Below are positions 16,859 to 32,340 of a stretch of DNA of 64,000 bases, piece by piece. Origin of the DNA: Pyrinomonadaceae bacterium (GTDB lineage: Bacteria; Acidobacteriota; Blastocatellia; Pyrinomonadales; Pyrinomonadaceae). How positions within the stretch are numbered: position 1 is the stretch's first letter; every line of letters starts with the position of its first letter. Below the pieces are notes generated by a model that was given only the letters and a program-made list of their open reading frames with translations, did no database searches and was not told the origin of the DNA. The stretch covers positions 888,462-952,461 of the forward strand of contig JAJQRF010000001.1 in the NCBI GenBank assembly GCA_021228405.1. Reading direction: 5' to 3'. A program made the position numbers and the translations under genes.

Positions 16859-16946
16859 TTTGCCCACGAAATACACGAAAGAAACGAAAAGATAAAATAA
16901 ATTAATTGTCTTTTTGTTCGTATTTTTCGTGTATTTCGTGGGCAAA
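16859..16946. repeat. Long inverted repeat family A, copy 2
   Basis: TTGCCCACGAAATACACGAA at the left pairs with its complement ending at 16946, with ~30-bp arms. It lies immediately after the pgi stop. Confidence 0.9.
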
Positions 16947-16956
16947 AAACCAAAAA

Positions 16957-16988
16957 AATAAGGCGGTGTGAAGTCCGCCTTTTTCAAC
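16957..16988. terminator. Terminator between pgi and the convergent HDOD gene
   Basis: A short hairpin AAGGCGG...CCGCCTTTTT with a T tail, following family A copy 2. Confidence 0.8.
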
Positions 16989-17006
16989 TTTAGTTTTAAC
17001 CCAAAA

Positions 17007-17885: not shown

Positions 17886-17995
17886 AATTTCTCTTTCTGT
17901 AAAATTTCGCCGAAATAATTTGTAAAAGCAGAATTGCCTCTTCAATCTTTTCGGCAAAACGACGGAAAACTTTAATTATTTTTTGGTTTTTCAGA

Positions 17996-18031
17996 CAAAA
18001 AAAGACGCAGACTTTCGTTCTGCGTCTTTCT
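17996..18031 (-). terminator. Terminator after the radical SAM gene
   Basis: AAAGACGCAGA/TCTGCGTCTTT hairpin with a T run in the leftward direction, 26 bp beyond the radical SAM stop codon. Confidence 0.88.
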
Positions 18032-18056
18032 ATGCAAAAGTTCTAAGTTTATTTGC

Positions 18057-20024
18057 TTAAACTCCCATCTTCTCGTATTCTTCCGCCGCTTCGTCTTCGA
18101 CTAAATAAGGCGTTGCGGTCGGTTTGTCCAAATCTTCCGCCAGAACTTTCGCAATCACCGGAAGCGATAAACTCCGCGTTTTCGCAATATTCGGAACGGG
18201 TTTTCCGGCGGCGTAAACCGCGTGGCGACCGTGTTCCTTATACCATTCCGCCAGAGATGCGGTTTTGTGCATTTCTTCAATGATCTGCCGCCAGCCGACA
18301 CCCGTGTTGTAAGCGCAGAATGAAATTTCGCCTTCCTGCGTTCCGTATGGAATCACGCACATTTCGGTGCGGCGGAAATCGTAAGTGAAAAGGTCTTGAA
18401 ACCACATTCCCTCGACACACAAAACGCGCCAAACGTCTTCCTCGGAACGCGTCTGCATACGGTCGTTTCTGTCCGAATTGGAATTTGCCGACGAAGGTTT
18501 GAAAAGGTTCAAAATCTGCGAGATCGGGAAATCTTCGGGCGCGTTTGCGGCGTTATAATTTCGCATAATCGCCATTCCGAGCTGTGCCATCGTCAATTTT
18601 TTGCCGCGTGCCGTATCCGTGATCGTCGCCACGTCCTTCATAAACTGTTCGTAATTGAAAAACTCGAACAGCGAACGCATTTCGTTCGTCTTTTTATTGA
18701 CGACGACGAGCGTGAAAATTCCGCAATTCGGATGACAATTGCACGACGACCAGCCCCACGGAGCATCCGCGCCTTGCAGCATATCCATCACGGAAGTAAA
18801 TGCCGAATAGCTTGAGAGCGGAAACCAATCGCGCAAAGGCTCTAATGCAAGTTTGTCGTTTAATTGGTCTTTCAGGTCGTGCGTCATTCCCGCAAGCGTG
18901 TAGCGTTGCTGTTTGCGGTCTGCGTCGGAAACGTCTTCGTCGCGTCCCGTAAACGAAACGGGCTGAAACGCGATGGTCTGAACTTTGTCGATGTTTTCCG
19001 CCGCAAATTTGACGATCTCGCCGATCGCGTCGTTGTTGATCGTGTTAACGATCGTCGTTACGAGCGTGACTTTGATGCCGACCGAAGCGAGATTTTCGAT
19101 CGCTTTTAATTTCACGTCGAACAGGTTTCCAACGCCGCGATGTTTATTTTTTTCTTCGGAAACGCCGTCGAATTGCAGATAAACGCCGTGCTGTCCGGCT
19201 TCTTTCGCCTGACGGCAAAATTCGATGTCTTCGGCGTAGCGGATGCCGTTCGTCGCGGCTAAGATTCTGTAAAATCCGACCTTTCTGGCATACGCGACCG
19301 ATTCGAGAAAGTGCGGCGACAATGTCGGTTCGCCGCCCGAAAACAGAATGATGATCTGTCGGCGCGGTTTGAACGAAACGGCGTTATCGAGAATCTGTTT
19401 CGTGTCTTCAAACGTCGGTTCGTGAACGTAGCCGACCTGGTTTGCGTCCATAAAACACGGGTTGCACATCATATTGCAACGGTTGGTCAGATCGACGGTC
19501 AAAACCGCGCCGCGACCGAATTTGATGTCGGATGTGCCGTGATGGTGAACGTGCGAATCTTCCGCCGATTTGAAATCGCGTCCGAAGAAGAGAGATTCGA
19601 TGCGCTCCAGAAATTTCGCGTCCGTCGCCAGCACGTCTTCAAATTCGCCGTGCGTCGGACAGGTTTTCCGCATAATCACCTGACCGTTTTCTTCGAGAAT
19701 CTGCGCTTTGATCTCGCCCGGATGCGAATTCATCAAAATTTCGAGCGGAATCTCGCCCGATGTGACACCTTCGCGCACCTGCTTGACGCATTTCGGACAA
19801 AGCGAATCGGTTTCACGCGGAAATCCGAGCGGCGGCGCGGTTCGTTCGTATGATTTCAAGAGCGGTTCCGCCGCCCATTTCGGTTGAATGGATTTGCCTT
19901 CGGGCAACGATTTGTTAACGGCTTGGAACGCCTTCCAACCGATGTCGGCAATTTTTGAAACCGCCTTTGAACCTTTTTTTCCTTTTCCGCCGCCTTCGCC
20001 GCGTCTAAAATTATCGCTAAACAT
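18057..20024 (-). CDS. Large radical SAM enzyme, COG1964-like (Tes/MJ0619-type candidate)
   Basis: 655 residues. A zinc-ribbon-like N-terminus has Cys76, Cys79 and Cys122 (SLCPKC...TCPTHGEF). The radical SAM cluster motif is Cys183, Cys187 and Cys190 (NRCNMMCNPC), with the SAM-binding FSGGEPTLS. A second cysteine set at 428-434 (CNCHPNCG) and more Cys near the C-terminus suggest an auxiliary Fe-S cluster. This layout resembles the COG1964 group, which includes archaeal tetraether synthase Tes and MJ0619; acidobacteria make membrane-spanning lipids, so a lipid C-C coupling role is one hypothesis. The reaction is not shown by sequence. It sits between HDOD genes and has its own terminator. Confidence 0.8.
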   Translation of the reverse strand: MFSDNFRRGEGGGKGKKGSKAVSKIADIGWKAFQAVNKSLPEGKSIQPKWAAEPLLKSYERTAPPLGFPRETDSLCPKCVKQVREGVTSGEIPLEILMNSHPGEIKAQILEENGQVIMRKTCPTHGEFEDVLATDAKFLERIESLFFGRDFKSAEDSHVHHHGTSDIKFGRGAVLTVDLTNRCNMMCNPCFMDANQVGYVHEPTFEDTKQILDNAVSFKPRRQIIILFSGGEPTLSPHFLESVAYARKVGFYRILAATNGIRYAEDIEFCRQAKEAGQHGVYLQFDGVSEEKNKHRGVGNLFDVKLKAIENLASVGIKVTLVTTIVNTINNDAIGEIVKFAAENIDKVQTIAFQPVSFTGRDEDVSDADRKQQRYTLAGMTHDLKDQLNDKLALEPLRDWFPLSSYSAFTSVMDMLQGADAPWGWSSCNCHPNCGIFTLVVVNKKTNEMRSLFEFFNYEQFMKDVATITDTARGKKLTMAQLGMAIMRNYNAANAPEDFPISQILNLFKPSSANSNSDRNDRMQTRSEEDVWRVLCVEGMWFQDLFTYDFRRTEMCVIPYGTQEGEISFCAYNTGVGWRQIIEEMHKTASLAEWYKEHGRHAVYAAGKPVPNIAKTRSLSLPVIAKVLAEDLDKPTATPYLVEDEAAEEYEKMGV

Positions 20025-20198
20025 ATTTATTTTTTATTCTTGGTTAAATGATAAATTATGTAAAGGCTAACAAAAAATCGGTCAAATTGTCCAATTTTTA
20101 ATGTAAATAGGCAGATTTTCAAATGCTTTCAATCGAAAGACAGCTTGCATTTTCAAAGACTTTCGTTTTTTAGCAGGGTTCGGAAAGAATTCTTTTAT

Positions 20199-20435
20199 AT
20201 GAAAGAAAAAATATGCGAAGTCCATAAGATCGTCCGCAAGCCGATGAAGATTCCGATTCGTTACGGCTTGTTCGAGGTTGACGCGGAGCTTAACGAAGCG
20301 CGGCAAATACTTTTCCCGTATGCGTTTACCTTCGTCAGCGGCGGCTGTGAAATCCAGGACGATGAGGAACCGACCGAATTTGTCTGCGAAGAATGCCGCA
20401 AAGACGAAGCCGGATGGCGCGCGCTCACGAAATGA
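20199..20435 (+). CDS. Small hypothetical protein with Cys pairs
   Basis: 78 residues, start ATG 20199 with weak GAAAG upstream. It has an early Cys-x-x-His (ICEVH), a mid GGC, and a late FVCEECR, so it could bind a metal ion such as zinc. No family was recognised. An upstream in-frame ATG (20145) and an opposing 74-codon frame are less protein-like. It stands alone between the radical SAM and second HDOD genes. Confidence 0.5.
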   Translation: MKEKICEVHKIVRKPMKIPIRYGLFEVDAELNEARQILFPYAFTFVSGGCEIQDDEEPTEFVCEECRKDEAGWRALTK

Positions 20436-20472
20436 CCGATCGCTTTGCAGATAATTTGAATATCCTTAAAAA

Positions 20473-20602
20473 TAAAAAATCTTCGGAAAAGATGAAGACC
20501 GGCAGATGATAAACGGTGTGATTATCGGGAAACGTTTATCGGCTGGTTGCTCTCGGGCTTCGGCTTTTCCGAAGATTAAGGCTTTTGAATCGATTCAAAA
20601 GC
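20473..20602. repeat. Complex long hairpin at convergent ends
   Basis: AATCTTCGGAAAAG near 20478 pairs with CTTTTCCGAAGATT near 20565-20578. Nested pairing (ATAAACG/CGTTTAT) extends it to ~105 bp. It is followed by a perfect GCTTTTGAATCGATTCAAAAGC palindrome (split over 20581-20602) close to the HDOD 2 stop. It probably acts as a terminator. Confidence 0.7.
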
Positions 20603-20607
20603 TAAGA

Positions 20608-21489
20608 TCAATTAAACGTCCAGATGATTTCTTCGAGCGGTTCCTGAATGTTGTCCCAAGCCTCGAACATCTGCTCGCGGGTGAGTCCCAGGAAAGCAAC
20701 GCCTTCGCAATCGAAAATCTCACCTTCTTCCGCCAGACGCAGACCGTAACCGTTGATGTTGGCGACGAGATCAGCCGCGTTGACGACGTTTGCCACGACT
20801 GTCGAGGTCGATGTTTTCGACGGCTGATGGTGGTGCATTATCACGTTGTAGATGCTCTGCGGCAAGCCCCATTTATAAGTGACATACGCGCCGACCTCAG
20901 TATGATCGAAACCGTAGATGCGTTGTTCCCATTCAAACATTTCGGCTTCGGTGCGTTTGTCGAGCAGTGATTCAAAGCGTTCAGTGTCCGAGCGGAGCAT
21001 CAGAATTTTCCCGATGTCGTGAAGCAATCCGCACAAAAACGATTCTTCCGCGCCGCGCAATCCGAGCGTTTTGCTGAGTTCGCGGGCGACCAGCCCGACC
21101 GCGAGCGAATGTTCCCAAACGGTGCGTCCCAAAACCGAATCGCGGATTTCCCTGCCGAAACTTTCCGACATCGCGCCGAGCATCACGAGGTCGTAGAGCG
21201 ATTTCGTGCCGACCGATTCGATCGCCTGATGGAGCGTCGTCACGGCTTTGCGCCGTGCGTAAAAACTGGAATTTGCCAGTTTCAGAATCCGCGCCGCCAA
21301 GATCGGGTCGTAGCCGACCGTATCGGCGAGCGTTTTCGACGAAACGTTTATATCGCGCAGTAGTTCGGTCAAACGCAGAACCGTTCCCTGCAAGGGCGGA
21401 ATCTTGGTCTTCACCAATCCGTCCATATCCAATCTCGGCTTGATGAGTAAATCGCGTTTTTCACTTAAATCTTTTGTCGGGCTAATCAT
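20608..21489 (-). CDS. HDOD-domain signalling protein 2
   Basis: 293 residues. Same layout as its neighbours: LVKTKIPPLQGTVLRLTELL at the start, CGLLHDIGKIL with the retained His-Asp, and FDHTEVGAYVTYKWGLP. No catalytic or DNA-binding domain is attached. The leftward order is HDOD 3, HDOD 2, then the small gene and radical SAM further on, separated by 270 bp or more, so co-transcription is uncertain. Confidence 0.88.
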   Translation of the reverse strand: MISPTKDLSEKRDLLIKPRLDMDGLVKTKIPPLQGTVLRLTELLRDINVSSKTLADTVGYDPILAARILKLANSSFYARRKAVTTLHQAIESVGTKSLYDLVMLGAMSESFGREIRDSVLGRTVWEHSLAVGLVARELSKTLGLRGAEESFLCGLLHDIGKILMLRSDTERFESLLDKRTEAEMFEWEQRIYGFDHTEVGAYVTYKWGLPQSIYNVIMHHHQPSKTSTSTVVANVVNAADLVANINGYGLRLAEEGEIFDCEGVAFLGLTREQMFEAWDNIQEPLEEIIWTFN

Positions 21490-21640
21490 AATTTTCTCGG
21501 GGTGTAATAAGATTCGGTTAAATTTTCCTCAAAACCTCTTTTCGGCATTTTTTGAAAAGTCTTGAATCGAATTGCAATAAATTTCTTTTCTTCTCAGAAG
21601 CCGTGGGAAAACTCGAAAACATCTAAAAACGTTTTCAATC

Positions 21641-21734
21641 AAGAACGCGGATCGGGCGAATCGGGCAGGATTTGTGCGGATCGATTAAATAGAAATCCGA
21701 ACATATCCGCCTCATTCGCCGAATCCGCGTTCCA
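21641..21734. repeat. Long inverted repeat family B, copy 2
   Basis: AGAACGCGGATCGGGCGAAT (21641 on) pairs with ...ATTCGCCGAATCCGCGTTCC (to 21734). Lies between the second and third HDOD genes. Confidence 0.85.
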
Positions 21735-21761
21735 AAAAAGAAATCCGGCTTGCGCAGTTAT

Positions 21762-22598
21762 TTAGAAAAACGCTCTGATGACTTCGCGCAGTTCGGCGAC
21801 GACTTTTTCCCAGACGGCATCGAGTTGTGCGGCGGTAAATTTTAATGTAATCATCGAAGCCGATTGTAGAAACTCTTCGCTGTATTCCTGCTTGTAATTC
21901 TTTGTATAAGCGACGGTGTCCGCGATATTGATAACGTGCGTCATCAAAAGCGCGTCGATGGTCGAGGTCGGGTTGTGATGATAAAGGATCATATTGCAGA
22001 CCGAATCGGACAGATTCCAACGCCGCGCCGCGAGTGCGCCGACCTGCGCGTGGTCGAATCCCAGAATCTCTCTTTCCGCGTCGGTCAGGTCGCCGCCTTC
22101 CGCCTGATTGAAAATCTCCGTGAACAGCGCGGAATCGGCGCGGAAGATGAGAAGTTTGCCGATGTCGTGCATCAAACCGCAGGTGAAGGCTTCGTCAACG
22201 CCGCGCAGCTTGAGCAAACCGCATAATTCGCGCGCGCCGATCGCCGTCGCCAGCGAATGAAACCAATTGTCGCGCCCGACGACCGAATTGCGAATCTCGC
22301 TCGAAAACGAGTCGGCGATCATTCCCATCACGATCATTTCATAGATCGCCTTATTGCCGAGCGCACCGACCGCGCTCGTCAGGCTCGTCACCTTCTGCTG
22401 AAACGCATAGATCGGCGAATTGGCGAGCCGCAGAACGCGCGAGGCGAGCATCGGGTCGCACCCGACCGCATCGGCGATCTTCTTTTGCGAACAATTGTAG
22501 TCGAGCAGTAAGGACGAAATCTTCAAAACACTGCCCGGCAACGGCGGAAGCTTTGCTTTCACGAGCAATTCCAAATCGAATTTTGCCTTGGCGATCAT
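21762..22598 (-). CDS. HDOD-domain signalling protein 3
   Basis: 278 residues. It begins with LLVKAKLPPLPGSVLKISSL and retains CGLMHDIGKLL and FDHAQVGALAARRWNL. It is the most divergent of the three paralogues in its C-terminal third. It is transcribed away from the SIR2-STAND gene, with a 270-bp gap containing no other gene. Confidence 0.87.
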   Translation of the reverse strand: MIAKAKFDLELLVKAKLPPLPGSVLKISSLLLDYNCSQKKIADAVGCDPMLASRVLRLANSPIYAFQQKVTSLTSAVGALGNKAIYEMIVMGMIADSFSSEIRNSVVGRDNWFHSLATAIGARELCGLLKLRGVDEAFTCGLMHDIGKLLIFRADSALFTEIFNQAEGGDLTDAEREILGFDHAQVGALAARRWNLSDSVCNMILYHHNPTSTIDALLMTHVINIADTVAYTKNYKQEYSEEFLQSASMITLKFTAAQLDAVWEKVVAELREVIRAFF

Positions 22599-22868
22599 AA
22601 AATAGAAAAGAGAAAAAAGGACGGCGTTTTGAAGAAATTTCCGTGCGCGGGCAAGCTTGCCCTTCTATCTTTTCGGCGTTTCGCCCGATTACTTTACCTT
22701 TGCCGCAAATTAATTCGCGCGGAAACACACGCGCCGACCGTTAAACCTTTCCGCCGTGAAAACCGATTGCAAATTCCCGGTTTTTCGCTTAAATTATTCG
22801 ACGGCAACCTTTTATTTCCGTTTCCGACCCGATGCAATTTATCGTGCAAAAACATTCGCGAGGCTCTC

Positions 22869-25800
22869 ATGGCAGAAGATGTTTTCAAAATTCCGAAATC
22901 TTTAAAGATCGCGCTCAAAGAAAAGCGCGTCGTTCCCTTCGTCGGTGCGGGTGCTTCGATACCTGTCAGGAAAAGGAACGCAGACGGCGCGATGTCCGAC
23001 GAATCTCTTTTCCTTAGTTGGAAAGATTTCATCGAATTTCTCATTCAAGGTCTGCGCGATGAAAACAGAAACGATGAAGCTGAATTCATTCAATTTGGAT
23101 TAAAAACCAAACGAATGACATATCTCGACGCATTACAGCAAATACAACAAATTCTCGGGAAAAATCTCTGGTATGAACTTTTTGAAAAGAGTTTCGGCTT
23201 CCTTGAAAGCGACGCGCACCCGGATTCTTTCAAACTCAATCGGCTTATCTGGGAACTCAGCAATAATTTAATCATCACAACCAATATTGACCGCGTCCTG
23301 CATTGGGCTTGCCCGAAACCTTTGGATTTCAATCTTCTCAATGTGCAGAAGGTCAAATTCGCGCAACTGCAAAACGAGAAAACTATCAAACGTCCGACCG
23401 TCTGGCATCTGCACGGACACATCGACCATATCGAAGAAATCATTTTTACCCGCGATCAATTTGAATCTTTCTACAAACAAAAGGACAACGAGGCGAAATT
23501 TCAAACCTTAATCAGTTTTTTAACCCAACGCACCTTCGTTTTTATCGGATTCAGCCTCGATGACGATTACTTGCGCGAGCTTCTCAAATACGTTCACGAT
23601 ACTTATGAAGGCGGCGCGGGTTCTTATTACATTTTGTTTCGCAAACGCGACATCGCAAGCGCGAATTTCCCCGACTACGTTACGCCGATTCCCTTCGCCG
23701 ATTTCGGAAAGCCTTTGGAAGATTTGGTCGAAGAGTTAGCGCGGATTGCAAAAGAGGACGACGACAAGCGTGAAGAGAAATCCATTGACGGAAATACGCA
23801 ATCACCTGACGAAACAAAGAAAGACGCGCAGGAATCTTTTTTCAATGTTCCGTATCGTTCCAAAGGCGATGAGTTTGTCGGGCGCGTCGGGAAGATTGAT
23901 GAGATTTTGGAAAAGCTATCAAATAACGGTTGTGCGGCTATCGGGCAAGCGGTGAGTGTGAAAGGTTTCGGCGGTTTGGGTAAGACACAGCTTGCCGTCG
24001 AATTTGCTCACGCTTACAAGGACAGATATAAAAACGGCGTGTATTGGCTGGTCGCCGATTCAAATATCGAAAATCAGATCGTGCAGATCGCCGACGAGCG
24101 TAAATGGATTAATAAAGATGACAAGAGCATCAATCAAATCGAAGTCGCCAAAGACGAATTTAAAAAACTTTCCGAATGTCTGATTCTGGTCGATAACGTC
24201 GAAGCCTTTGATGATGTCAAAGATTATCTGCCGAAAACCGATTCGCACACGCATCTTTTGATAACTTCGCGCGAAAAGGACGGACGTTTTCACGAAATAG
24301 ACATCGACCTCTTAAACAGGGACGAATCACGCGAGCTTTTGCAGAAAGTTTCAAAACGCAATCCAACCGACGAAAACGAAAAAGCCGAACTCGAAAAGAT
24401 TCTCGAAATTCTCGGCGATATTCCGCTTGCCGTCGAGCTTGTCGGCGGTTTTCTGAAAGAGCATAAAGATATTTCATTCGGCGAATATTTGGGATATTTG
24501 GAAAATGTTCCTTTATCCGAATTGGAAGAAGAATTTCCGAAAAGCAGTTTTACATCTCACGACCATAGTATTATCCGCACTTTGCGAATCAGCGAAAAAA
24601 CTATCGAGAAAAATCCTTTATTGGTTGAGATTCTCAAAGTTTTAGCGTGGAGCGGAAGATCGTCAATGAGCGTTTCGCTTTTAAAGGATTTGATTGCACC
24701 TGACAATGATTTCAAATTTAGAATTGCATTGAGCGATGCCGTAAATCTTCGTTTGATTAATAAAGATGAAGATGGGGAACGCTATACGATTCACCGATTA
24801 TTGGCAAAGGTTATTCGCTTTGAACAATCGCTCGAAAAGCAAATCGAATGGCTGACTAAAATAGCGGAAAATCTCGAAAAATGGTTTGACGACCGTAAAG
24901 AAGAATTTAATTATCTCGCTGACTTTGAAGCCGAAACCGAACATTTAACTGAATGGCAAAAGAACACAATCAAATATCTTCCTGAAAAAGCCATTTGGTT
25001 CGTTGCCTTAGAAAGTTATCCGTTATGGCAACGCGGTAATTACAAGGAAGCATTTCAGTTTCTGGAAAAATCTTTTGGTTTATATGAAAGTAAAAAAATA
25101 GATAATCATGCTTTATTAGCGAATCTGAATAATGATTTAGGTGTAATTTACGGAGCCTTAGGCAATTATCAAAAAGCACTCGAGTATCAAGAGAAAGCCT
25201 TAGAGTTGCAAAAGGAATTATTCGGTGAGAAGCATCCCTCAACGGCATTGTCTTACAGCAATGTCGGTTTGACTTACGGAGCCTTAGGCAATCATCAAAA
25301 AGCACTCGAATATAAAGAGAAAGCTTTAGAGTTGCGAAAGGAATTATTCGGTGAGAAGCATCCCTCAACGGCAACGTCTTACAACAATGTCGGTGGAACC
25401 TACGGAGAATTAGGCAATCATCGAAAAGCACTTGAATATCTAGAGAAAGCCTTAGAGTTGCGAAAGGAATTATTCGGTGAGAAGCATCCCTTAACGGCAT
25501 TGTCTTACAGCAATGTCGGTGGAACCTACGGAGATTTAGGCAATCATCGAAAAGCACTCGAATATAAAGAGAAAGCCTTAGAGTTGCGAAAGGAATTATT
25601 CGGTGAGAAGCATCCCTCAACGGCATTGTCTTACAACAATGTCGGTTTGACTTACGGAGCCTTAGGCAATCATCAAAAAGCACTCGAATATAAAGAGAAA
25701 GCTTTAGAGTTGCAAAAGGAATTATTCGGTGAGAAGCATCCCTCAACGGCAACATCTTACAACAATGTCGGTTTGACTTACGGAGATTTAGGCGAGCATC

Positions 25801-26060
25801 AAAAAGCACTTGAGTATTTTGAAAATGCTTTGGATATTCATCAAAACATTTTAGGAAAACAGCATCCGAATTCAATTTTTATTGCAAGAAATTTGATAAT
25901 TACATATTTAAATCTGGGTAATAACCTAAAAGCACGAGAGAAGTTGCTTGAATATTTTTATATCGTTCCGCAAAATAACCCTCATTGGAAATGGTTTGAA
26001 GAAGAGAGCCGTCCGTATCGTCCTAATAAAAACAGGCAGAAGAAAAAGAAACGACGGTGA
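22869..26060 (+). CDS. SIR2-STAND-TPR protein, candidate anti-phage NADase
   Basis: 1063 residues from the ATG at 22869, preceded by GAGG; longer upstream starts give an atypical leader. Residues ~15-295 form a SIR2-like NADase domain: FVGAGAS (24-30), TTNID with Asn139, HLHGH with His182, and FIGFSLDD. Residues ~335-640 are a STAND/NB-ARC ATPase: FVGR (336-339), P-loop GFGGLGKT (366-373), ILVDNVE Walker B, LLITSRE, and GDIPLAVELVGG. Residues ~745-1000 are kinesin-light-chain-type TPRs with a 42-residue period, then a basic tail (RQKKKKRR). In related defence proteins the repeats sense a phage product, STAND oligomerises and SIR2 depletes NAD+. That role is inferred; no partner gene is adjacent. 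Confidence 0.88.
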   Translation: MAEDVFKIPKSLKIALKEKRVVPFVGAGASIPVRKRNADGAMSDESLFLSWKDFIEFLIQGLRDENRNDEAEFIQFGLKTKRMTYLDALQQIQQILGKNLWYELFEKSFGFLESDAHPDSFKLNRLIWELSNNLIITTNIDRVLHWACPKPLDFNLLNVQKVKFAQLQNEKTIKRPTVWHLHGHIDHIEEIIFTRDQFESFYKQKDNEAKFQTLISFLTQRTFVFIGFSLDDDYLRELLKYVHDTYEGGAGSYYILFRKRDIASANFPDYVTPIPFADFGKPLEDLVEELARIAKEDDDKREEKSIDGNTQSPDETKKDAQESFFNVPYRSKGDEFVGRVGKIDEILEKLSNNGCAAIGQAVSVKGFGGLGKTQLAVEFAHAYKDRYKNGVYWLVADSNIENQIVQIADERKWINKDDKSINQIEVAKDEFKKLSECLILVDNVEAFDDVKDYLPKTDSHTHLLITSREKDGRFHEIDIDLLNRDESRELLQKVSKRNPTDENEKAELEKILEILGDIPLAVELVGGFLKEHKDISFGEYLGYLENVPLSELEEEFPKSSFTSHDHSIIRTLRISEKTIEKNPLLVEILKVLAWSGRSSMSVSLLKDLIAPDNDFKFRIALSDAVNLRLINKDEDGERYTIHRLLAKVIRFEQSLEKQIEWLTKIAENLEKWFDDRKEEFNYLADFEAETEHLTEWQKNTIKYLPEKAIWFVALESYPLWQRGNYKEAFQFLEKSFGLYESKKIDNHALLANLNNDLGVIYGALGNYQKALEYQEKALELQKELFGEKHPSTALSYSNVGLTYGALGNHQKALEYKEKALELRKELFGEKHPSTATSYNNVGGTYGELGNHRKALEYLEKALELRKELFGEKHPLTALSYSNVGGTYGDLGNHRKALEYKEKALELRKELFGEKHPSTALSYNNVGLTYGALGNHQKALEYKEKALELQKELFGEKHPSTATSYNNVGLTYGDLGEHQKALEYFENALDIHQNILGKQHPNSIFIARNLIITYLNLGNNLKAREKLLEYFYIVPQNNPHWKWFEEESRPYRPNKNRQKKKKRR
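25149..25904 (+). repeat. Six tandem 126-bp TPR modules inside the SIR2-STAND gene
   Basis: The landmark TACGGA recurs at 25149, 25275, 25401, 25527, 25653 and 25779, exactly 126 bp apart. Units share long identical DNA stretches, including silent positions; only the last is clearly divergent. This indicates recent duplication or gene conversion in the putative sensor domain. Confidence 0.92.
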
Positions 26061-26067
26061 GTAATTA

Positions 26068-26392
26068 CGAACTACGAATTGCGAGTTACGAATTAGAGAT
26101 TGGATTATGCGCTTGCGGGATTTGGGTTTAATCTTGTGAGCGTATTTAATTATCGGTCGAGTGTAAAGCGTAATCTCTGGAGATTAAAGGATAATCTGTT
26201 GAGATTAGGCTTTGCGCTTGTGAGCGTATTGAATAATCTTTAAAGATTTTGCTTTGCGCTCGTGAGCGTAAAGGATAATCTTGCGGGATTATTCAATACG
26301 CTTGCGTGATTATGCTTTACGCTCTTGAGATTATCCTTTACGCTCGTGAGATTATGCTTTACGCTCACGGTATTATTTAATAATAATTTCGG
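26068..26392. repeat. Array 3: exact 21-bp repeats with TAATCT...AGATTA and GCGCT...AGCGT palindromes
   Basis: Starts with a short heptamer run (ACGAACT/ACGAATT, 26068-26096). Then about 13 units of 21 bp follow, mixing two half-site types: TAATCT/AGATTA and T(G/A)CGCT/AGCGTA. Some units are perfect palindromes (TAATCTCTGGAGATTA); others pair one half-site of each type. It lies just after the SIR2-STAND gene. No terminator was recognised there. Confidence 0.9.
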
Positions 26393-26543
26393 GAAACAAA
26401 CATTTTTTGCTCTGCATTAAAGAAATATCTTTACATTTTTCTTCTATTTATATATATTATTCGCGTTTCAATTCGGAAACAAAGCTCTCTTCTTTTTGAA
26501 GTCTGCTTATCAATTTAAATTCTACAAAACGGAGGTTAAATAA

Positions 26544-26918
26544 ATGGCAAATAAAAGAACAAAAAGATTGCGTCCGGCAATCTTACAGGAAGACCTCGAT
26601 GCGTTTGCGGCGTTGCAGGCAATCGAGGGTTATAATCCGTCGAATCCGGCTTATACGGTGGAGAAAGGAAGGGCGATATTTGAAAGGATACGTGAAGATC
26701 AAACGTCCGAAGTGCAGAAGGATGCCGCCGCCGAAGCACAGCGCGATAAGGCAGTCAATTCCGAACACGACGGACACGATTTCATTCAAGGGATGAAAAA
26801 TCAGGTCAAAGCGCAATACGGCGAAGATTCGGACGAGTATGCCTCGCTCGGTATGAAAAAGAAAAGCGAATACCGCACGGGCAGACGCACCCCGTCAACA
26901 CCGCCGACGACAACATAG
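26544..26918 (+). CDS. Hypothetical hydrophilic protein
   Basis: 124 residues behind a good ribosome-binding site (GGAGG). It is highly charged and has no membrane segment. The central part (residues ~20-100) is predicted helical; the ends are basic and Pro/Thr-rich (TGRRTPSTPPTTT). No known family was recognised. It lies 480 bp after the SIR2-STAND gene with array 3 between, so it need not be functionally linked. Confidence 0.65.
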   Translation: MANKRTKRLRPAILQEDLDAFAALQAIEGYNPSNPAYTVEKGRAIFERIREDQTSEVQKDAAAEAQRDKAVNSEHDGHDFIQGMKNQVKAQYGEDSDEYASLGMKKKSEYRTGRRTPSTPPTTT

Positions 26919-26949
26919 GTTAGAGGGTTTCAAGTTTAAGTAAAGAAAA

Positions 26950-27045
26950 ATTGCCCACGAAATACACGAAAGAAACGAAATAAAGAAAAATATCAAAAAA
27001 ACTTTTTCTTATTTTTTAGTGTCTTTCGTGTATTTCGTGGGCAAT
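26950..27045. repeat. Long inverted repeat family A, copy 3
   Basis: ATTGCCCACGAAATACACGA (26950 on) pairs with ...TCGTGTATTTCGTGGGCAAT (to 27045), with arms of about 28 bp. It follows the hypothetical gene and could end its transcript. Confidence 0.9.
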
Positions 27046-27091
27046 ATCTCTTTTCTTTTCAAACTTTCCAAATAAATCGAATAAGCAAAAG

Positions 27092-27230
27092 AAGCTCCCC
27101 TCCTTTGAAATGAGGGGTGACACGAAGTGTCGGGGTGGTTGTTATACGCTGATGACTCGAAATGTTAAAGAATCATCGAAACACCCTGCCCTTTCGGGCA
27201 TCCCTCCTTATCCAAGGAGGGAAGTTTTTT
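27092..27230. repeat. REP/MITE-like element, copy 1, left of the SDR gene
   Basis: Starts AAGCTCCCCTCCTTTGAAA, has small internal hairpins (GAGGGG..., ACACGAAGTGT) and CGGGGTGGTT, then ATCATCGAAACACCC and a closing CTCCTTATCCAAGGAGG hairpin. A related, shorter copy lies in opposite orientation at 28262-28378, so the SDR gene is bracketed by inverted copies. Confidence 0.8.
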
Positions 27231-27282
27231 ATCGATTAACTTACCCGCATTGAATCATTTTATGTTTTTGAATTCGTTTGCC

Positions 27283-28014
27283 TTACACCAATTGATGATT
27301 TTCGGGCATCAGGACGATCTCGGACATCACGCCCTCGCCGGATTGGGTCGCGGCAAAGAAAACGGCGTTTGCCGCCGCGTCGATCGAGAGCATCTTGTCG
27401 CGCTGGACTTTCATCGAGATATTATCCCAAAAGCTCGAATCGACACCGCCGAAGTGCATTAAGCTGAAACGGATTCCGAAGCGTTTATATTCGTCCTTCA
27501 GGCACTTTATCATTCCCGTCAGCGCGTATTTCGCCGCACAGTAGGCGGAAGCCTGCATCATCGGGGCTTTACCTAAAATCCCCGGAATCGCGACGACGCG
27601 CCCGAACTTTTGTTCAGCCATCTTCGGCAGAACGGCTTGCAGGACGTTGAACGCGGTGCGCACGTTGGCGTTGATGAGCGCGTCGAAATCCTGCAAAGTG
27701 AGTTCGCCGAAAGGCTTTAAGATTCCCATTCCCGCCGCGAGAATCAAGTAATCGATCGAATCGAACCGCGCAATGGCGGATTCGACCAACGCCCGCACGT
27801 CCGCTTCGACGCTCGCATCGGCTTCGACCGAGAGAACGTTGCCGTTCCCTTTCGTGTTGAGTTTATATTCCAATTCCATCAGCTCGGCTTCGTTGCGCGA
27901 GGTGATGACGACGTTTGCGCCCGCATTTGAGAACAATTCCGCCGTTTCACGCCCGATGCCGCGCCCCGCACCGACGATCAATGCCGTCTTTCCCTCTAAG
28001 TTTATTTCGTTCAT
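27283..28014 (-). CDS. Short-chain dehydrogenase/reductase
   Basis: 243 residues. The cofactor loop is GAGRGIGRE; a following VITSR (Arg after the second strand) suggests NADP preference. The usual NNAG is altered to LAAGMG. The catalytic YxxxK is SAYCAAKYA, with the Ser 13-14 residues earlier not obvious, so the Ser position should be confirmed by alignment. Substrate unknown. The gene is flanked by inverted copies of a REP-like element, which suggests it may have moved as a unit. Confidence 0.85.
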   Translation of the reverse strand: MNEINLEGKTALIVGAGRGIGRETAELFSNAGANVVITSRNEAELMELEYKLNTKGNGNVLSVEADASVEADVRALVESAIARFDSIDYLILAAGMGILKPFGELTLQDFDALINANVRTAFNVLQAVLPKMAEQKFGRVVAIPGILGKAPMMQASAYCAAKYALTGMIKCLKDEYKRFGIRFSLMHFGGVDSSFWDNISMKVQRDKMLSIDAAANAVFFAATQSGEGVMSEIVLMPENHQLV

Positions 28015-28261
28015 TCCTATTTTTTATTCGTCTTAAAAATATTTTTGGATTTTCACCGAAGCGCATTTTTTCGTTTGCCGCGCGCACAAAAGCGCACGGC
28101 GTAAGCACACCTCCGGCAAAGGTTATATAAAATGTTTCGAGAGAACACTTCGATTATAAACATTTTGACGCGGAAAATGACAAGAGAGGGCGCACGATGT
28201 TTTTACGATTTAAGGCGCGATACGAACAAAATAGAGAAAATTTTTCCTTTTTCAAATGAGA

Positions 28262-28378
28262 GATGTTTTTAAGTGCGGGACGGTTCGATGATTCTCTGAT
28301 GTTTTGAGATATTAACGCAGGACGAACCACCCCGACGCTGGCGCGTCTGCCCCTCCTTTCAAAGGAGGGGAGCTTTTC
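28262..28378. repeat. REP/MITE-like element, copy 2, right of the SDR gene (inverted)
   Basis: Read on the minus strand it starts AAGCTCCCCTCCTTTGAAAG, keeps CGGGGTGGTT and ATCATCGAA as in copy 1, but lacks the final hairpin of that copy. The rest of the 28015-28407 gap is AT-rich and holds no recognised gene. Confidence 0.8.
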
Positions 28379-28407
28379 GGTTTCAGATTATTCGCGTTTT
28401 TAATCGG

Positions 28408-29715
28408 CTATTTCGATTTTTTGTTTATCTCGGCGTGATATTTTTTGATGACCGCCCATGTCGTGCGGTCGCTGTCGAAGACGGTGTTCAAGCCCTGCTC
28501 TTCCATCGGCGGATCGCCCATATAGTCGTCGCCCTTTTTCCAGAATATCTGCCCCTTGACCGGTCGCGCCGTGCCGCCGAACGCCCAGAAGTTCGCGCCG
28601 GCGATGTGCCCGTTCGTCTTTGCGCTGTCGGCGACGAACGCGAATATTTTCCCGTAATAATCATCGCGTAACGAAGTTGGCGAATTAATATCGAAAGACT
28701 GCGCGTTGCGCGGCAAGCCGAACTCTTCGATCACGAGCGGTTTATTCAGCTTTTGCGCGACGGCGAGGTGGTCTTTGACATAAGCCGCCGCCTTTTCGAC
28801 GACGTTCGTAAAGCCTTCCGCAACCTTGTCTTCCTTGAACCAGCCCCAATTTTTCGCCCAGACGTGAATCGTCAGGTAATCGACGTTTTTATCGCGGTGA
28901 ATCTCCTCGAAAAGCGGCATACTCTCCGTGCCCATATAGCCTTCGTGCCCGAGCGTGACGAGATGATTTTTGTCCTTCGCTTTTATCAACGCGGAAACGT
29001 CGGCGATCCATTGCTTGTAATCCTTTTCCGCAAACGGGCGCATCGGTCGCGGTTCGTTCGCAAGTTCCCACGCCATAATCGCGGGATCGTCAACATATTT
29101 TTTCCCTGAAATTTTGTTCGTGCGGTTCAGAATCAGATCAACCTGATCGTTGTAGGCGCGTTTGCACGGTTCGCACCCGTAAAATTTACTGACAATATCG
29201 CGTTGTTCGTCCCAGGTCAGCTTGCGCGTCTTTTGCTCTTCCGCGACGAGATCGTTCCAGATCAGATATTGCTGAAATCCGCCGCTCCATTCCCAGTTGT
29301 TGCTGAAAAAAACGATCGCTTTCAGGTCGCGTTTGCCCATTTCATAAAGAACTAAATCCAGACCGTCGAGCACGGATTCGTCAAACTTCCCTTGCGCCGT
29401 TTGCAGCGGCGGACCGACGCGCGTTACGCCGTTAATCAAGCCTTCGCCCTCTGCGCCCGCCATTATCCGCAGGTTGGTGACACCGTTTTTCTTTAGGAAA
29501 TCGAGTTCCTTTCGCAAGCGTTCAACACCGCGCTTCTTGTCTTTTTCCAATCCCAAAACCGTGCCATACCAGTAATTCGTGCCGATAAAATAATACGGCT
29601 TGTCGCCGATAAAAAACCGGTGATCTTTGACCGTCACGAACTTGGATTGCGCCAAAGCAGAAAGCGCACAAGCCGCAAGCAGAAACAAGACGAACGTAAT
29701 TTTTTTGATATTCAT
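28408..29715 (-). CDS. Secreted glycoside hydrolase family 5, beta-mannanase-like (GH5_7)
   Basis: 435 residues with a signal peptide (MNIKKITFVLFLLAACALSALAQ). A (beta/alpha)8 GH5 domain: YFIGTNYWY near the start, acid/base Glu in AWELANEPRP, and nucleophile Glu in VIEEFGLPRN. The motifs fit endo-1,4-beta-mannosidase subfamily GH5_7. No carbohydrate-binding module is seen. The Uma2 gene lies 9 bp upstream in the same direction, so the pair may share a transcript. Confidence 0.9.
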   Translation of the reverse strand: MNIKKITFVLFLLAACALSALAQSKFVTVKDHRFFIGDKPYYFIGTNYWYGTVLGLEKDKKRGVERLRKELDFLKKNGVTNLRIMAGAEGEGLINGVTRVGPPLQTAQGKFDESVLDGLDLVLYEMGKRDLKAIVFFSNNWEWSGGFQQYLIWNDLVAEEQKTRKLTWDEQRDIVSKFYGCEPCKRAYNDQVDLILNRTNKISGKKYVDDPAIMAWELANEPRPMRPFAEKDYKQWIADVSALIKAKDKNHLVTLGHEGYMGTESMPLFEEIHRDKNVDYLTIHVWAKNWGWFKEDKVAEGFTNVVEKAAAYVKDHLAVAQKLNKPLVIEEFGLPRNAQSFDINSPTSLRDDYYGKIFAFVADSAKTNGHIAGANFWAFGGTARPVKGQIFWKKGDDYMGDPPMEEQGLNTVFDSDRTTWAVIKKYHAEINKKSK

Positions 29716-29724
29716 AGATTCGGA

Positions 29725-30318
29725 TTAAAACAAATCGTCAAACTTTATTTCGATTTCGGGAAAGGCGACCAAGTTGAAAACATCGCCGCTTCGATAAGTT
29801 CTTTTCGCGCCGTAACCGTCCGCACTCGGTTCGCGGTAATCTTCGAGAGTTTCGTTTTGCAGGTTGAGCAAGAGGTATTGCTGAATCCCGTTGCGCGAAT
29901 ACGCCTGCGCTTTCGTTTCGCGGTCATATACCAAAGTCGTGTCGGAAATTTCCATAATGAGCAGAATGTCGGCAGGTGTCGGGTGGTTCTCGGAATATTC
30001 TTTCTCATCCCAATTTGCCAGCACGACATCGGGTTCGGGTTCGGAAAAATCGTCGAGCCGAATCGGGTCTTGACTGCGAACAATTAATCGTTCTCCGAAC
30101 AATCTGATAAAAAACCTGATAACTTTTGAATTTGCAGATGTATGCTTCGTTCCTTTGGGCATAATTTCAATGATCCTTCCATTCAATAATTCGATACGGT
30201 CATTTTCGGTGTAAATTCCGGCTTCGATCATTCGGTCATATTCCGAAACCGTGATCAAACGCGGTTTTACGCCGTTTGTGGCGGAGTTTGAAATCGTTCT
30301 CTCTAAAACTGCGGACAT
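29725..30318 (-). CDS. Uma2-family (DUF820) PD-(D/E)XK nuclease-like protein
   Basis: 197 residues. The family order is present: DRIELLNGRIIEIMPKG, then SEPEPDVVLAN and ILLIMEISDTTLVYDRETK, which carry the Asp and Glu-x-Ser positions of the nuclease-like core, ending in YLLLNL. Uma2 proteins are numerous in cyanobacteria and acidobacteria; their cellular role is not known. It precedes the GH5 gene. Confidence 0.88.
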   Translation of the reverse strand: MSAVLERTISNSATNGVKPRLITVSEYDRMIEAGIYTENDRIELLNGRIIEIMPKGTKHTSANSKVIRFFIRLFGERLIVRSQDPIRLDDFSEPEPDVVLANWDEKEYSENHPTPADILLIMEISDTTLVYDRETKAQAYSRNGIQQYLLLNLQNETLEDYREPSADGYGAKRTYRSGDVFNLVAFPEIEIKFDDLF

Positions 30319-30438
30319 ATTTTTTACCTCTCTGTGATTTTACAAGACTTTTGCGAAAATATCGAAGATTTACGAAGGTGCATTAAAACTGTGAATTTGG
30401 CGAAGCAAATATAATTAAGTAAAGTAAGAGTTTATTTT

Positions 30439-32340
30439 ATGAACATTATTTCACTGGAAAATGTCAGCAAAAATTACGGCATCAAACCGCTTTTCGAGAA
30501 CGTCACGCTCGGTTTTGAAGACACGGATAAGATCGGCATCATCGGCGCGAACGGTTCGGGGAAAAGCACTTTTTTGAAAGTCGTCGCCGGAACGGAAACG
30601 CCCGACACAGGCAAAGTCGTCCGCGCAAACGGCAAAACTCTCGCGTTTCTGTCGCAAAATCCCTCAATCGACGAAGAAGCGACCGTGCTCGAAACGATCT
30701 TTGCGGCGAGTTCGGGCGTGATGAAAACGATCCGCGATTACGAATTCGCCTGTCAAGAATTAGCCGTCGAATATTCGGACGCAAAGCTCGAAAAAGTTTC
30801 CTTGCTTCAGCACGAACTCGAAATAAACGGCGGTTGGGAGATCGAAACGAACGCGAAAAACGTGCTGACGAAACTCGGCATTACCGACACGTCGGCGCAG
30901 ATGAAAACGCTTTCGGGCGGACAGCGCAAACGCGTTGCGCTCGCGCACGAACTCATTTTCAAACCCGACATTTTAATTTTGGACGAGCCGACCAACCATC
31001 TCGATGCTGACACGATCGCGTGGCTTGAAGATTACCTGAAACGCTACACGGGCGCGCTTCTGCTCGTCACGCACGACCGCTATTTTCTCGACCGTGTAAC
31101 AAACCGAATCTTTGAAATAGATCGCGGCACGATTCAATCTTTCGGCGGAAATTACGCGTATTATCTGGAGAAGAAAGAAGAACAGGAAACGCTCCGCGCA
31201 ACCGAAGGACACAAACGCGAACAGCTCATCAAAAAGGAACTTGCGTGGCTCAGACGCGGCGCGAAAGCGCGCACACGCAAATCGAAACACCGCATCAATG
31301 CCGCCTACGAACTAATGGCACAACCGAAGGAAAAGGCGAAAGCCGAAATCGATATTGCCATCGGGTCAAAACGTTTGGGAACTAAAATAATCGAGCTTCA
31401 CGAAGTTTCAAAAGCTTACGGCGACCGCAAATTGATCGAAGATTTTACATACCTTCTGAAACGCGACGATCGTATCGGCATCATCGGCGCAAACGGTTCG
31501 GGCAAAACGACTCTGCTCGAAATCATCACGAACCGCACGAAACAGGACGCGGGCGAGATCGAGATCGGACAGACGGTTCACGTCGGCTATTACGATCAGG
31601 AAAGCCGCGCTTTGAACGAAGCACAGCGCGTCATTGATTACATCAAGGAAGTTGCCGAATATGTCACGACCGTCGAAGGAAATCAGATTACGGCTTCGCA
31701 GATGCTCGAAAAATTTCTGTTTCCGCCGGCGGTGCAATATTCGTTTATCGAAAATCTTTCGGGCGGCGAACGGCGCAGACTTTATCTCTTGCGGATTTTA
31801 ATGAGTGAACCGAATGTTTTACTGCTCGACGAACCGACCAACGATCTCGACATCCCGACGCTCATCGCGTTGGAAGAATATCTGGACGATTTCGCCGGCG
31901 CGCTCATCGTCGTCAGCCACGACCGTTATTTTTTGGACAGAACGATCGATGCGGTTTTCAAATTTGAAGGCGACGGGAAAATCCGCGAATTTGCGGGCGA
32001 TTATTCGGCTTATCTCGAAATCATCGAACGCGAAGCGGCGGAAATGCGTTCAGAGTCAACGCTTCAGCGTGCTTCGACGCAAATGGCGCAAGCGGCGGGT
32101 GAAACGGAAAAGCCGAAATCGAACAAGCTTTCCTTTAAAGAACGGCGCGAATTTGAAACGCTCGAAACGGAAATTGCCGAAAGCGAAAATCGTTTGGCGG
32201 AAATCGAGAAAGAATTGAACGAATTTGCGACCGACGCTTATAAACTCAATCAATTAATCGCCGAACAGGAAAAACTTAACGCAAAGCTCGAAGCCGACAC
32301 CGAACGCTGGCTCGAACTTTCCGAACGCGCAGATTTTTAG
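30439..32340 (+). CDS. uup: ABC-F family ATPase, Uup-type
   Basis: 633 residues with two ABC domains and no membrane part. Walker A: GANGSGKST and GANGSGKTT. Signatures: LSGGQRKRVALA and LSGGERRRLYLL, each followed by LDEPTN(H/D)LD. Between the domains is the ABC-F linker with Arg-rich WLRRGAKARTRKSK. The C-terminal ~100 residues form a coiled coil (LETEIAESENRLAEIEKEL), which is the Uup feature. Such proteins act on the ribosome or in DNA transactions. It is a single-gene unit. Confidence 0.92.
   Translation: MNIISLENVSKNYGIKPLFENVTLGFEDTDKIGIIGANGSGKSTFLKVVAGTETPDTGKVVRANGKTLAFLSQNPSIDEEATVLETIFAASSGVMKTIRDYEFACQELAVEYSDAKLEKVSLLQHELEINGGWEIETNAKNVLTKLGITDTSAQMKTLSGGQRKRVALAHELIFKPDILILDEPTNHLDADTIAWLEDYLKRYTGALLLVTHDRYFLDRVTNRIFEIDRGTIQSFGGNYAYYLEKKEEQETLRATEGHKREQLIKKELAWLRRGAKARTRKSKHRINAAYELMAQPKEKAKAEIDIAIGSKRLGTKIIELHEVSKAYGDRKLIEDFTYLLKRDDRIGIIGANGSGKTTLLEIITNRTKQDAGEIEIGQTVHVGYYDQESRALNEAQRVIDYIKEVAEYVTTVEGNQITASQMLEKFLFPPAVQYSFIENLSGGERRRLYLLRILMSEPNVLLLDEPTNDLDIPTLIALEEYLDDFAGALIVVSHDRYFLDRTIDAVFKFEGDGKIREFAGDYSAYLEIIEREAAEMRSESTLQRASTQMAQAAGETEKPKSNKLSFKERREFETLETEIAESENRLAEIEKELNEFATDAYKLNQLIAEQEKLNAKLEADTERWLELSERADF

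What the first reader, a model, noticed from the sequence alone, without database searches (positions are those of the whole stretch)
22869..26060. SIR2-STAND-TPR single-gene defence candidate
A complete SIR2 NADase head (FVGAGAS, Asn139, His182), an NB-ARC-type ATPase (GFGGLGKT) and kinesin-light-chain TPRs in one protein. This is the plan of NLR-like anti-phage proteins: sensor repeats, STAND switch, NAD+-depleting effector. The particular order with 42-residue TPRs in an acidobacterial setting may be undescribed.
Basis: partly seen in the sequence, partly recalled or inferred. Interest (0 to 1): 0.75.

Follow-up and report, generated by a model that had tools for sequence, protein, structure and literature searches.

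The report
NLR-like NAD-destroying bacterial immune receptor
A single bacterial gene encodes an immune-receptor-like protein (a repeat sensor, an ATP-driven switch and a probable NAD-destroying toxin domain), and its relatives keep the same switch and a basic tail while swapping the toxin domain for at least four other kinds; whether it fights phages is untested.

Summary
Window 22869-26060 (+) encodes a 1063-aa protein with a SIR2_2 head, an NB-ARC STAND ATPase and about seven KLC-type TPR helix pairs (six in exact 42-residue register). Asn139/His182 align with ThsA Asn112/His152 and are kept in 12 of 12 SIR2 rows compared. The AlphaFold2 model (mean pLDDT 84, pTM 0.59) matches a STAND-TPR protein and Avs5 overall, and KomC/ThsA/DSR2 for the head. 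The anatomy supports a one-gene, NLR-like abortive-infection receptor. Genomic context does not settle it: no conserved partner, and 4 of 30 neighbours scanned singly match defence models. SIR2-STAND-TPR is already known as Avs5 (nSTAND3, not NB-ARC), so the plan alone is not new.
(1) A scattered, multi-phylum clade carries one NB-ARC/TPR chassis with SIR2, calcineurin-like phosphoesterase, TIR, HD-CE or PRTase-CE heads; one sister pair shows a clean swap. (2) All 25 members read to a stop codon finish in a polybasic tail (7-13 K/R in the last 20 residues), against 1-7 in 43 NB-ARC outgroup proteins. (3) Four central TPR units are 88-98% identical in DNA. New variant of a known kind; antiviral function untested.

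The parts
22869..26060 (+). complete gene, 1063 aa: SIR2 - NB-ARC - winged helix/arm - TPR - polybasic tail
22860..22863 (+). GAGG, likely ribosome-binding site before ATG 22869
   Evidence: sequence; inference
22893..23753 (+). SIR2 NADase-like effector domain (aa 9-295); Asn139 at 23283-23285, His182 at 23412-23414
23769..23831 (+). flexible linker between effector and NB-ARC (aa 301-321, pLDDT under 50); in the sister pair L046/L050 the change from unrelated to similar sequence lies in the matching stretch
23841..25037 (+). NB-ARC plus winged-helix/arm chassis conserved across the clade (aa 325-723); Walker A aa 366-373 at 23964-23987; Asp442; MHD-like IHRL aa 641-644 at 24789-24800 (naming of the MHD-like motif is recalled)
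25107..25964 (+). KLC-type TPR superhelix (aa about 747-1032, seven helix pairs in the model)
25119..25874 (+). six in-register 126-bp TPR units (start aa 751, 793, 835, 877, 919, 961); units 2-5 (25245-25748) are 88-98% identical in DNA
25998..26057 (+). C-terminal polybasic tail (last 20 aa: 10 K/R; last 10: 8 K/R); last 10 residues predicted disordered

Best explanation
A one-gene, NLR-like immune receptor. At rest the NB-ARC ATPase holds the SIR2 head inactive. The TPR superhelix binds an invader protein or peptide in its groove (inferred). Binding lets NB-ARC exchange nucleotide and oligomerise (inferred from the STAND family), which clusters the SIR2 heads so that they hydrolyse NAD+ through Asn139/His182, killing or arresting the infected cell (inferred from ThsA, DSR2 and Avs5). 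The NB-ARC/winged-helix/TPR/basic-tail part is a chassis that in relatives drives other, probably nucleotide-targeting, heads. The TPR units probably change by exchange between near-identical repeats, so the sensor can be re-tuned while the chassis stays fixed (inferred). Shown here: domains, active-site residues, predicted fold, effector swapping, near-identical repeats, and the tail in every member read to a stop. Not shown: NAD+ loss, oligomerisation, phage protection, ligand.
For: Pfam SIR2_2, NB-ARC and TPR all over cut-off. Asn139/His182 align with ThsA Asn112/His152 and are kept in 12 of 12 SIR2 rows; six Walker A positions are kept in 24 of 24. AlphaFold2 model mean pLDDT 84.3; Foldseek rank 1 is a STAND-TPR protein (6mfv), AVAST5 (9nc9) ranks 10 and EfAvs5 SIR2-STAND (9jap) 22; head-only matches are KomC/HAM-SIR2, ThsA and DSR2 at Z 22-25, anti-phage proteins (that KomC is one is recalled). 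Best PADLOC models on the head are LmuA (77.9 bits) and ThsA (59.2). Effectors in the clade are SIR2, metallophosphoesterase, TIR, HD-CE and PRTase-CE; the fewest changes on the NB-ARC tree is 9. Sisters L046 (SIR2) and L050 (phosphoesterase) are 72% identical in NB-ARC but 23% before it. The distribution is patchy: strong matches in 4 of 60 genomes counting its own, and 1 of 396 sampled from the phylum, its own, at E<=1e-40. The TPR region diverges faster than head and NB-ARC in three of three same-effector sister pairs (48% vs 83-88%; 48% vs 71-77%; 50% vs 61-69%).
Against: Context gives little support: no Pfam family in more than 3 of 123 neighbour proteins (28 loci), and 26 of 30 neighbours scanned singly have no PADLOC match at 1e-10. 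Of the window's own ten neighbours three match PADLOC models, weakly or generically: a radical SAM enzyme (pVip, 51 bits), Uma2 (PDC-S03, 48 bits) and an ABC-F-like ATPase (mad3, 171 bits); the rest are three HDOD proteins, a phosphoglucose isomerase-like protein, SDR, GH5 and one unknown. No phage record matched and only 2 distant viral-contig hits were found, so mobility is inferred from distribution only. pN/pS between TPR units is below 1 at groove positions (0.80 window, 0.63 clade), so positive selection is not shown. pTM is 0.59, so domain placement is uncertain. No experiment on a clade member was found in the paper searches.
Confidence: 0.7

Rival explanations
1. A non-immune regulator: an FxsT-like AP-ATPase/TPR protein that works with a modified peptide, with the SIR2 head acting as a signalling or deacylating enzyme, not a killer.
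For: NCBIfam FxSxx_TPR scores 342.8 against a cut-off of 300, best stretch aa 333-905; TPR neighbours by fold include Rap/NprR peptide receptors; FxSxx systems carry an AP-ATPase with TPRs (PMC7159879 passages).
Against: No SPASM, metallopeptidase or vWA domain among the ten neighbours scanned (the radical SAM there has an HMPTM zinc ribbon). Clade members carry five unrelated heads, which does not fit one peptide pathway. The SIR2 head is closest to NAD-hydrolysing ThsA by sequence and to KomC/ThsA/DSR2 by fold.
Confidence: 0.12
2. A kin- or self/non-self recognition (allorecognition) killer like fungal NB-ARC-TPR heterokaryon-incompatibility NLRs, aimed at related cells or their elements more than at phages.
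For: High internal TPR conservation (units 2-5 mean 88.5% aa identity), variation raised at groove positions, a one-unit repeat-number difference between sisters: the traits described for fungal NLRs (PMC4986451 passages).
Against: Bacteria lack cell fusion (general knowledge); the same repeat pattern is seen in NB-ARC proteins outside the clade; no allelic series in one species was available.
Confidence: 0.1
3. A decaying genomic passenger: an intact-looking but unexpressed or drifting repeat gene.
For: Several relatives have broken or shortened frames (L034, L041, L056, L057, L058, L063, L068), and there is no operon context.
Against: In the window copy the SIR2, Walker A and MHD-like residues checked are intact and pN/pS at non-groove TPR positions is 0.44; most of the other clade loci have long open frames over wide phylogenetic distance. 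Breaks in draft MAGs may be assembly errors.
Confidence: 0.05

Closest known systems
Avs5 (AVAST type 5), SIR2-STAND
   Same: N-terminal SIR2 NADase head (PF13289), central STAND ATPase, C-terminal helical repeats incl. TPR/Sel1; Foldseek hits 9jap, 9nc9
   Different: Avs5 uses nSTAND3 (PF20720); this protein has NB-ARC and no nSTAND3 match at E<=0.01. Here there are 42-residue KLC-type TPRs in near-identical units and a polybasic tail. No PADLOC Avs model matched at E<=0.01.
Effector-variable AP-ATPase/STAND-TPR conflict proteins (Kaur et al. 2020, 2021)
   Same: Swappable heads including TIR, calcineurin-like phosphoesterase and SIR2 in systems with NTPase and TPR parts (passages)
   Different: In the passages read, SIR2 is named on a TPR-GreA/B-C-PIN chassis, not on this NB-ARC one; the basic tail is not mentioned in the passages read ('polybasic' 0 occurrences in PMC8195603)
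Fungal NB-ARC-TPR NLRs (e.g. Podospora Pa_2_10340)
   Same: NB-ARC plus TPRs modelled on kinesin light chain 2, high internal repeat conservation, repeat-number change and variation on the binding surface (passages)
   Different: Different N-terminal effectors and kingdom; positive selection was reported there, not shown here
ThsA (Thoeris), KomC, DSR2, LmuA (Lamassu) SIR2 effectors
   Same: Head fold and, for ThsA, the aligned Asn/His pair
   Different: These use a SLOG domain, KomB, a helical receptor domain or an SMC partner (recalled); here the putative switch is an NB-ARC in the same chain
FxSxx-COOH system TPR protein (FxsT, NF040586)
   Same: NB-ARC+TPR part over the model's cut-off
   Different: No FxSxx operon genes among ten neighbours; SIR2 head; basic tail

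Membership tests
STAND/NLR-type tripartite receptor | N-terminal effector, central STAND NTPase with Walker A/B, C-terminal repeat sensor in one chain | tested here: met
STAND/NLR-type tripartite receptor | ligand-triggered oligomerisation and effector activation | not testable with these tools
   needs biochemistry
Avs5 (AVAST type 5) | SIR2 (PF13289) head | tested here: met
   81.2 bits
Avs5 (AVAST type 5) | nSTAND3 ATPase (PF20720) | tested here: not met
   not among 18 Pfam families at E<=0.01; NB-ARC 54.0 bits instead; no Avs model in PADLOC at E<=0.01
Avs5 (AVAST type 5) | sensing of a jumbo-phage protein | not testable with these tools
   experiment needed
FxSxx-COOH system TPR protein (NF040586) | sequence model over cut-off | tested here: met
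   342.8 vs 300 bits, best stretch aa 333-905
FxSxx-COOH system TPR protein (NF040586) | linked SPASM radical SAM / metallopeptidase / vWA genes | tested here: not met
   none among the ten neighbouring proteins scanned with Pfam, window 15169-32340; short precursor peptides were not searched for
Thoeris ThsA | SIR2 head with Asn/His pair | tested here: met
Thoeris ThsA | C-terminal SLOG domain and a TIR ThsB partner | tested here: not met
   no SLOG in the Pfam list; PADLOC ThsA best match covers only aa 126-262; no TIR among ten neighbours
Lamassu | LmuA head plus LmuB SMC partner | tested here: not met
   LmuA model matches aa 11-260 only; no LmuB among ten neighbours scanned with PADLOC at 1e-10; the SMC_N match at 30439-32337 is in an ABC-F-like protein
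Internally conserved NLR repeats (Dyrka et al. threshold: over 85% identity over at least 100 aa) | repeat identity over 85% over at least 100 aa | tested here: met
   units 2-5, 168 aa, mean pairwise 88.5%, range 83-95%; all six units only 73.7%
Internally conserved NLR repeats | positive selection at groove positions | tested here: inconclusive
   groove variation raised (p=0.009 window, 0.00035 clade) but pN/pS below 1
Defence-island gene | known defence genes in the neighbourhood of most homologues | tested here: inconclusive
   4 of 30 clade neighbours and 3 of 10 window neighbours match PADLOC models at 1e-10, several of them generic ATPase or radical SAM matches; the scan of 123 lists only the 25 commonest of 176 models

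The most novel reading that the evidence does not exclude
A multi-phylum bacterial NLR family, not named in the papers I found: one NB-ARC/TPR chassis that has exchanged its N-terminal killer among at least five unrelated NAD/nucleotide-targeting enzymes, re-tunes its sensor by exchange between near-identical TPR units in the manner of fungal allorecognition NLRs, and ends in a polybasic (often GFR-preceded) disordered tail. The tail is a working part independent of effector and repeat number, most likely an anchor to nucleic acid or to the acidic membrane that places the receptor where infection is sensed, or an autoinhibitory peptide.
Probability: 0.35. Interest if true: 0.7.

Novelty: new variant of a known kind. 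Interest (0 to 1): 0.5.

Why it matters
If the receptor works as proposed, bacteria have an NB-ARC/TPR immune receptor family whose sensor evolves as in fungal NLRs and whose effector is plug-and-play. It would be a natural system for asking how one STAND switch can fire chemically unrelated effectors, whether repeat exchange re-targets bacterial immunity, and what a conserved basic tail does in such a receptor. Sister pairs (L046/L050 for the effector swap, L045/L048 for sensor turnover) make both questions directly testable. A SIR2 member also occurs in a record of a named strain, Marinomonas shanghaiensis DSL-35 (L039).

Tried and rejected
Considered and rejected: membership of Avs5 (no nSTAND3), Thoeris and Lamassu (head-only matches), and an FxSxx system (no operon genes, although the NCBIfam model passes its cut-off). 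An upstream start (TTG 22629) was rejected: GAGG precedes ATG 22869, and the SIR2 relatives L003 and L004 begin near it in alignment A2.

Led nowhere: a single-protein scan of genome contigs found no relative; phages gave none; viral contigs gave only two distant NB-ARC hits, L121/L122, not followed; plasmids gave 55 records, none covering 80% of the query, and the 30 rows listed are 23-31% identical, mostly over NB-ARC; Rfam found nothing in 20000-29000. Those tables show only the 25 commonest of 177 Pfam and 176 PADLOC families, so the number of neighbours with any defence match is not known. PADLOC on 30 of the 136 singly gave 4 with matches: a SoFic-like Fic protein (L039), a RhuM/PDC-S05 protein (L061), an AriA/OLD-like ATPase (L044) and a DUF499/HmaC-like protein (L052). 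Ten paper searches found no description of this clade or its tail; the library lacks most subscription papers. One search (HD-CE/PRTase-CE) gave nothing relevant.

Rows dropped before counts. Tail count: the 25 used are the window plus 24 loci with a stop, read in the open frame at the end of the NB-ARC match (for L056 this is a different frame from its head). Left out: L033, L040, L054, L059 (no stop before the contig end; L040 is basic, 12 of the last 20 visible residues), L041, L057, L058 (frame ends early, not basic), L068 (frame broken, 0 K/R). L046 has 8 of 20 but only 2 in its last 10: its basic stretch is followed by about a dozen further residues. Outgroup: 43 of L064-L112, leaving out L068 and five without a stop. 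Tree: 30 clade rows + 8 of the outgroup loci; L041, L056, L068 left out. Head labels come from Pfam for 11 proteins and from motifs read by eye for the rest; in L034 and L063 only part of the SIR2 head is in the open frame, L047 and L049 show a fuller head only if a non-ATG start is allowed, L063 also matches only the first 222 positions of the chassis, and L037 is unlabelled. L041 may have a further TIR/SEFIR-like head (by eye; not scanned). The count of 9 changes rests on a tree with 11 of 35 inner branches under 80, so it may be too high; starred forks give at least two clean changes (L046/L050; L062 vs L059/L061).

Limits of the TPR test: the groove set {2,5,9,12,13,33,34} is recalled (Magliery and Regan), not read in a call, and I had seen the variable positions of the window's units before the test, so the window p value is not independent. 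In the window positions 12, 33 and 34 of the set hardly vary, while 24, 31, 18 and 41 outside it do. Groove positions are less constrained in TPRs generally (recalled), the outgroup shows the same pattern (p=0.004), and no non-STAND TPR control was run. In L045/L048 dS is also raised in the TPRs (0.97 vs 0.34-0.53), which fits repeat exchange or aligning non-matching units as well as selection; in two other pairs dS is saturated.
Full report
Check of the observation. The frame from ATG 22869 to the stop at 26058-26060 (+) encodes 1063 aa. Pfam finds SIR2_2 (aa 134-261), NB-ARC (342-533) and a long TPR array, all above curated cut-offs. In a phmmer alignment to ThsA, Asn139 pairs with ThsA Asn112 and His182 with ThsA His152 (positions counted by me; their catalytic role is recalled). 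The first-stage observation is right in coordinates, domains and residue numbers.

Fold. An AlphaFold2 model from a 24-row clade alignment has mean pLDDT 84.3 and pTM 0.59; the linker (301-321) and the last ten residues are below 50, as is 361-367 just before the Walker A motif. Foldseek ranks a STAND-TPR protein (6mfv) first; the AVAST5 filament (9nc9) is rank 10 and EfAvs5 SIR2-STAND (9jap) rank 22. VIA-align gives head-only rows at Z 22-25 with KomC/HAM-SIR2, ThsA and DSR2 over about 250-260 residues, and for the TPRs Z 34.9 with APPBP2, then Rap/NprR peptide receptors and LGN. NB-ARC was barely tested in that list.

A chassis with exchangeable heads. A profile of the NB-ARC/winged-helix part (A1) brought 80 of 308 related loci in GTDB species genomes. 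In a tree with 8 outgroup rows, 30 rows including the window form one clade (96/91), the window pairing with L033 (100/99). Origins are Acidobacteriota, Pseudomonadota, Thermodesulfobacteriota, Campylobacterota, Nitrospinota, Bipolaricaulota and Aminicenantes. Heads among these 30 rows: 14 SIR2, 9 calcineurin-like phosphoesterase, 3 TIR, 2 HD-CE, 1 PRTase-CE, 1 unlabelled (motifs by eye where Pfam was not run). The fewest head changes on the tree is 9, with the caveat on weak branches given under Tried and rejected. The cleanest case is L046 (SIR2) against L050 (phosphoesterase), sisters at 100/100: 72% identity across NB-ARC, 63% across the TPRs with one whole 42-aa unit missing in one, 76% in the last 45 residues, but 23% before the NB-ARC.

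The tail. All 25 clade proteins read to a stop codon have 7-13 Lys/Arg in their last 20 residues (window 10), against 1-7 in 43 NB-ARC outgroup proteins (Mann-Whitney p = 6e-12, rows not independent). Eight further loci could not be counted, and four of them end non-basic in broken or early-ending frames (see Tried and rejected). A G-[FYL]-[RKH] motif stands in the last 45 residues in 16 of 25 against 1 of 43; the window protein itself lacks it. From the end of the NB-ARC core match to the stop there are 188 to 691 residues in members whose match is complete (L063, with a partial match, is shorter still), so the tail is kept whatever the number of repeats. The letters are not always conserved: the last 45 residues are 76% identical in L045/L048 and L046/L050 but 44% in L042/L035 and 56% in L039/L043; what is constant is the basic character. 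Function unknown; nucleic-acid or membrane tether or autoinhibition are proposals.

The sensor. The window's six TPR units are in exact 126-bp register. Units 2-5 are 83-95% identical in protein and 88-98% in DNA. Differences fall mostly at unit positions 2, 9, 13, 24, 31, 18 and 5. The recalled TPR groove set averages 0.416 against 0.153 elsewhere (permutation p 0.009) in the window, 0.462 against 0.169 (p 0.00035) over 11 clade proteins, and 0.434 against 0.164 (p 0.004) over 7 outgroup proteins, so the pattern is not special to this clade. pN/pS is higher in the groove (0.80 vs 0.44 window; 0.63 vs 0.27 clade; 0.97 vs 0.36 outgroup) but below 1. In L045/L048, which share a phosphoesterase head, identity is 88% (head), 83% (NB-ARC), 48% (TPR) and 76% (last 45), with both dN and dS raised in the TPRs. 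This fits concerted evolution by repeat exchange, as described for fungal NLRs (PMC4986451, passages), but does not prove exchange or selection. High internal repeat identity is also uneven: several clade members have neighbouring units no more than about 50-60% identical in protein.

Distribution and context. Of 60 genomes of relatives, counting its own, four had strong matches: own, G015, G034 (SIR2) and G056 (phosphoesterase). Of 396 sampled from the phylum only its own passed 1e-40. No phage record matched. The window neighbours are HDOD proteins, a radical SAM, a phosphoglucose isomerase-like protein, SDR, GH5, Uma2, an ABC-F-like protein and one unknown; three of these ten match PADLOC models, weakly or generically. 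For 28 clade loci, 123 nearby proteins showed no Pfam family in more than 3 members and no PADLOC model in more than 2; 4 of 30 scanned singly had PADLOC matches. So there is no conserved partner and no clear defence island; context neither supports nor refutes a defence role. The scattered distribution suggests horizontal spread (inference).

Mechanism and comparison. The best-supported model is a one-gene STAND receptor: TPR groove binds a trigger, NB-ARC switches and oligomerises, SIR2 heads hydrolyse NAD+. Each step beyond the anatomy is inferred from ThsA, DSR2 and Avs5. Avs5 shares the plan but has nSTAND3, which was not found here. Kaur et al. describe effector-variable conflict systems with AP-ATPase/TPR parts. 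Ten paper searches found no account of this clade or its tail, in a library limited to open licences. I rate it a new variant of a known kind. For each paper opened (PMC12931631, PMC8195603, PMC7159879, PMC4986451, PMC12169576, PMC10907252) I saw passages returned by term searches and the start of the abstract in a listing, not the whole text.

Noticed in passing
window 26096-26368; also own genome C4:855269-855432 (L113) and C18:123218-123379 (L120): An array of diverged 21-nt units (core GATTATNCTTTACGCTC) in both orientations, forming long imperfect inverted repeats right after the gene. Eleven matches within 1 mismatch in the own genome, at three places, against 0 for the reversed control; 8 in the window (2 mismatches) against 0.06 expected. 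The other two copies lie between unrelated genes, so it looks like a dispersed repeat, not part of the receptor.
   Followed up: partly
window 17007-17957, 20608-21489, 21762-22598 (-): Three HDOD-domain genes within 5.6 kb on the minus strand, two of them neighbours of each other and directly upstream of the receptor.
   Followed up: no
L062 9044-12181: A Campylobacteraceae member of the clade carries a PRTase-CE head (PF24390) while its closest relatives L059/L061 carry SIR2.
   Followed up: partly
L071, L084, L088, L099, L101: NB-ARC proteins outside the clade (Anaerolineales/Anaerolineaceae, Aminicenantes and an unplaced bacterium) also have near-identical 42-aa TPR units, up to 97% DNA identity between neighbours, so repeat homogenisation is wider than this clade.
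   Followed up: partly
L041, open frame around 5595-6887: A broken-frame relative whose N-terminal part reads by eye like a TIR/SEFIR-type head; not scanned.
   Followed up: no
L033 4185-8668: Beside the closest relative of the window protein lie a NurA-domain gene and a 1023-aa protein with an M48 peptidase domain and a beta-propeller match far below its cut-off.
   Followed up: no
L039 7470-8843; L044 4641-5633; L052 7604-8764; L061 8056-8916: The four PADLOC-positive neighbours among 30 looked at singly: SoFic-like Fic, AriA/OLD-like ATPase, DUF499/HmaC-like and RhuM/PDC-S05 proteins.
   Followed up: no
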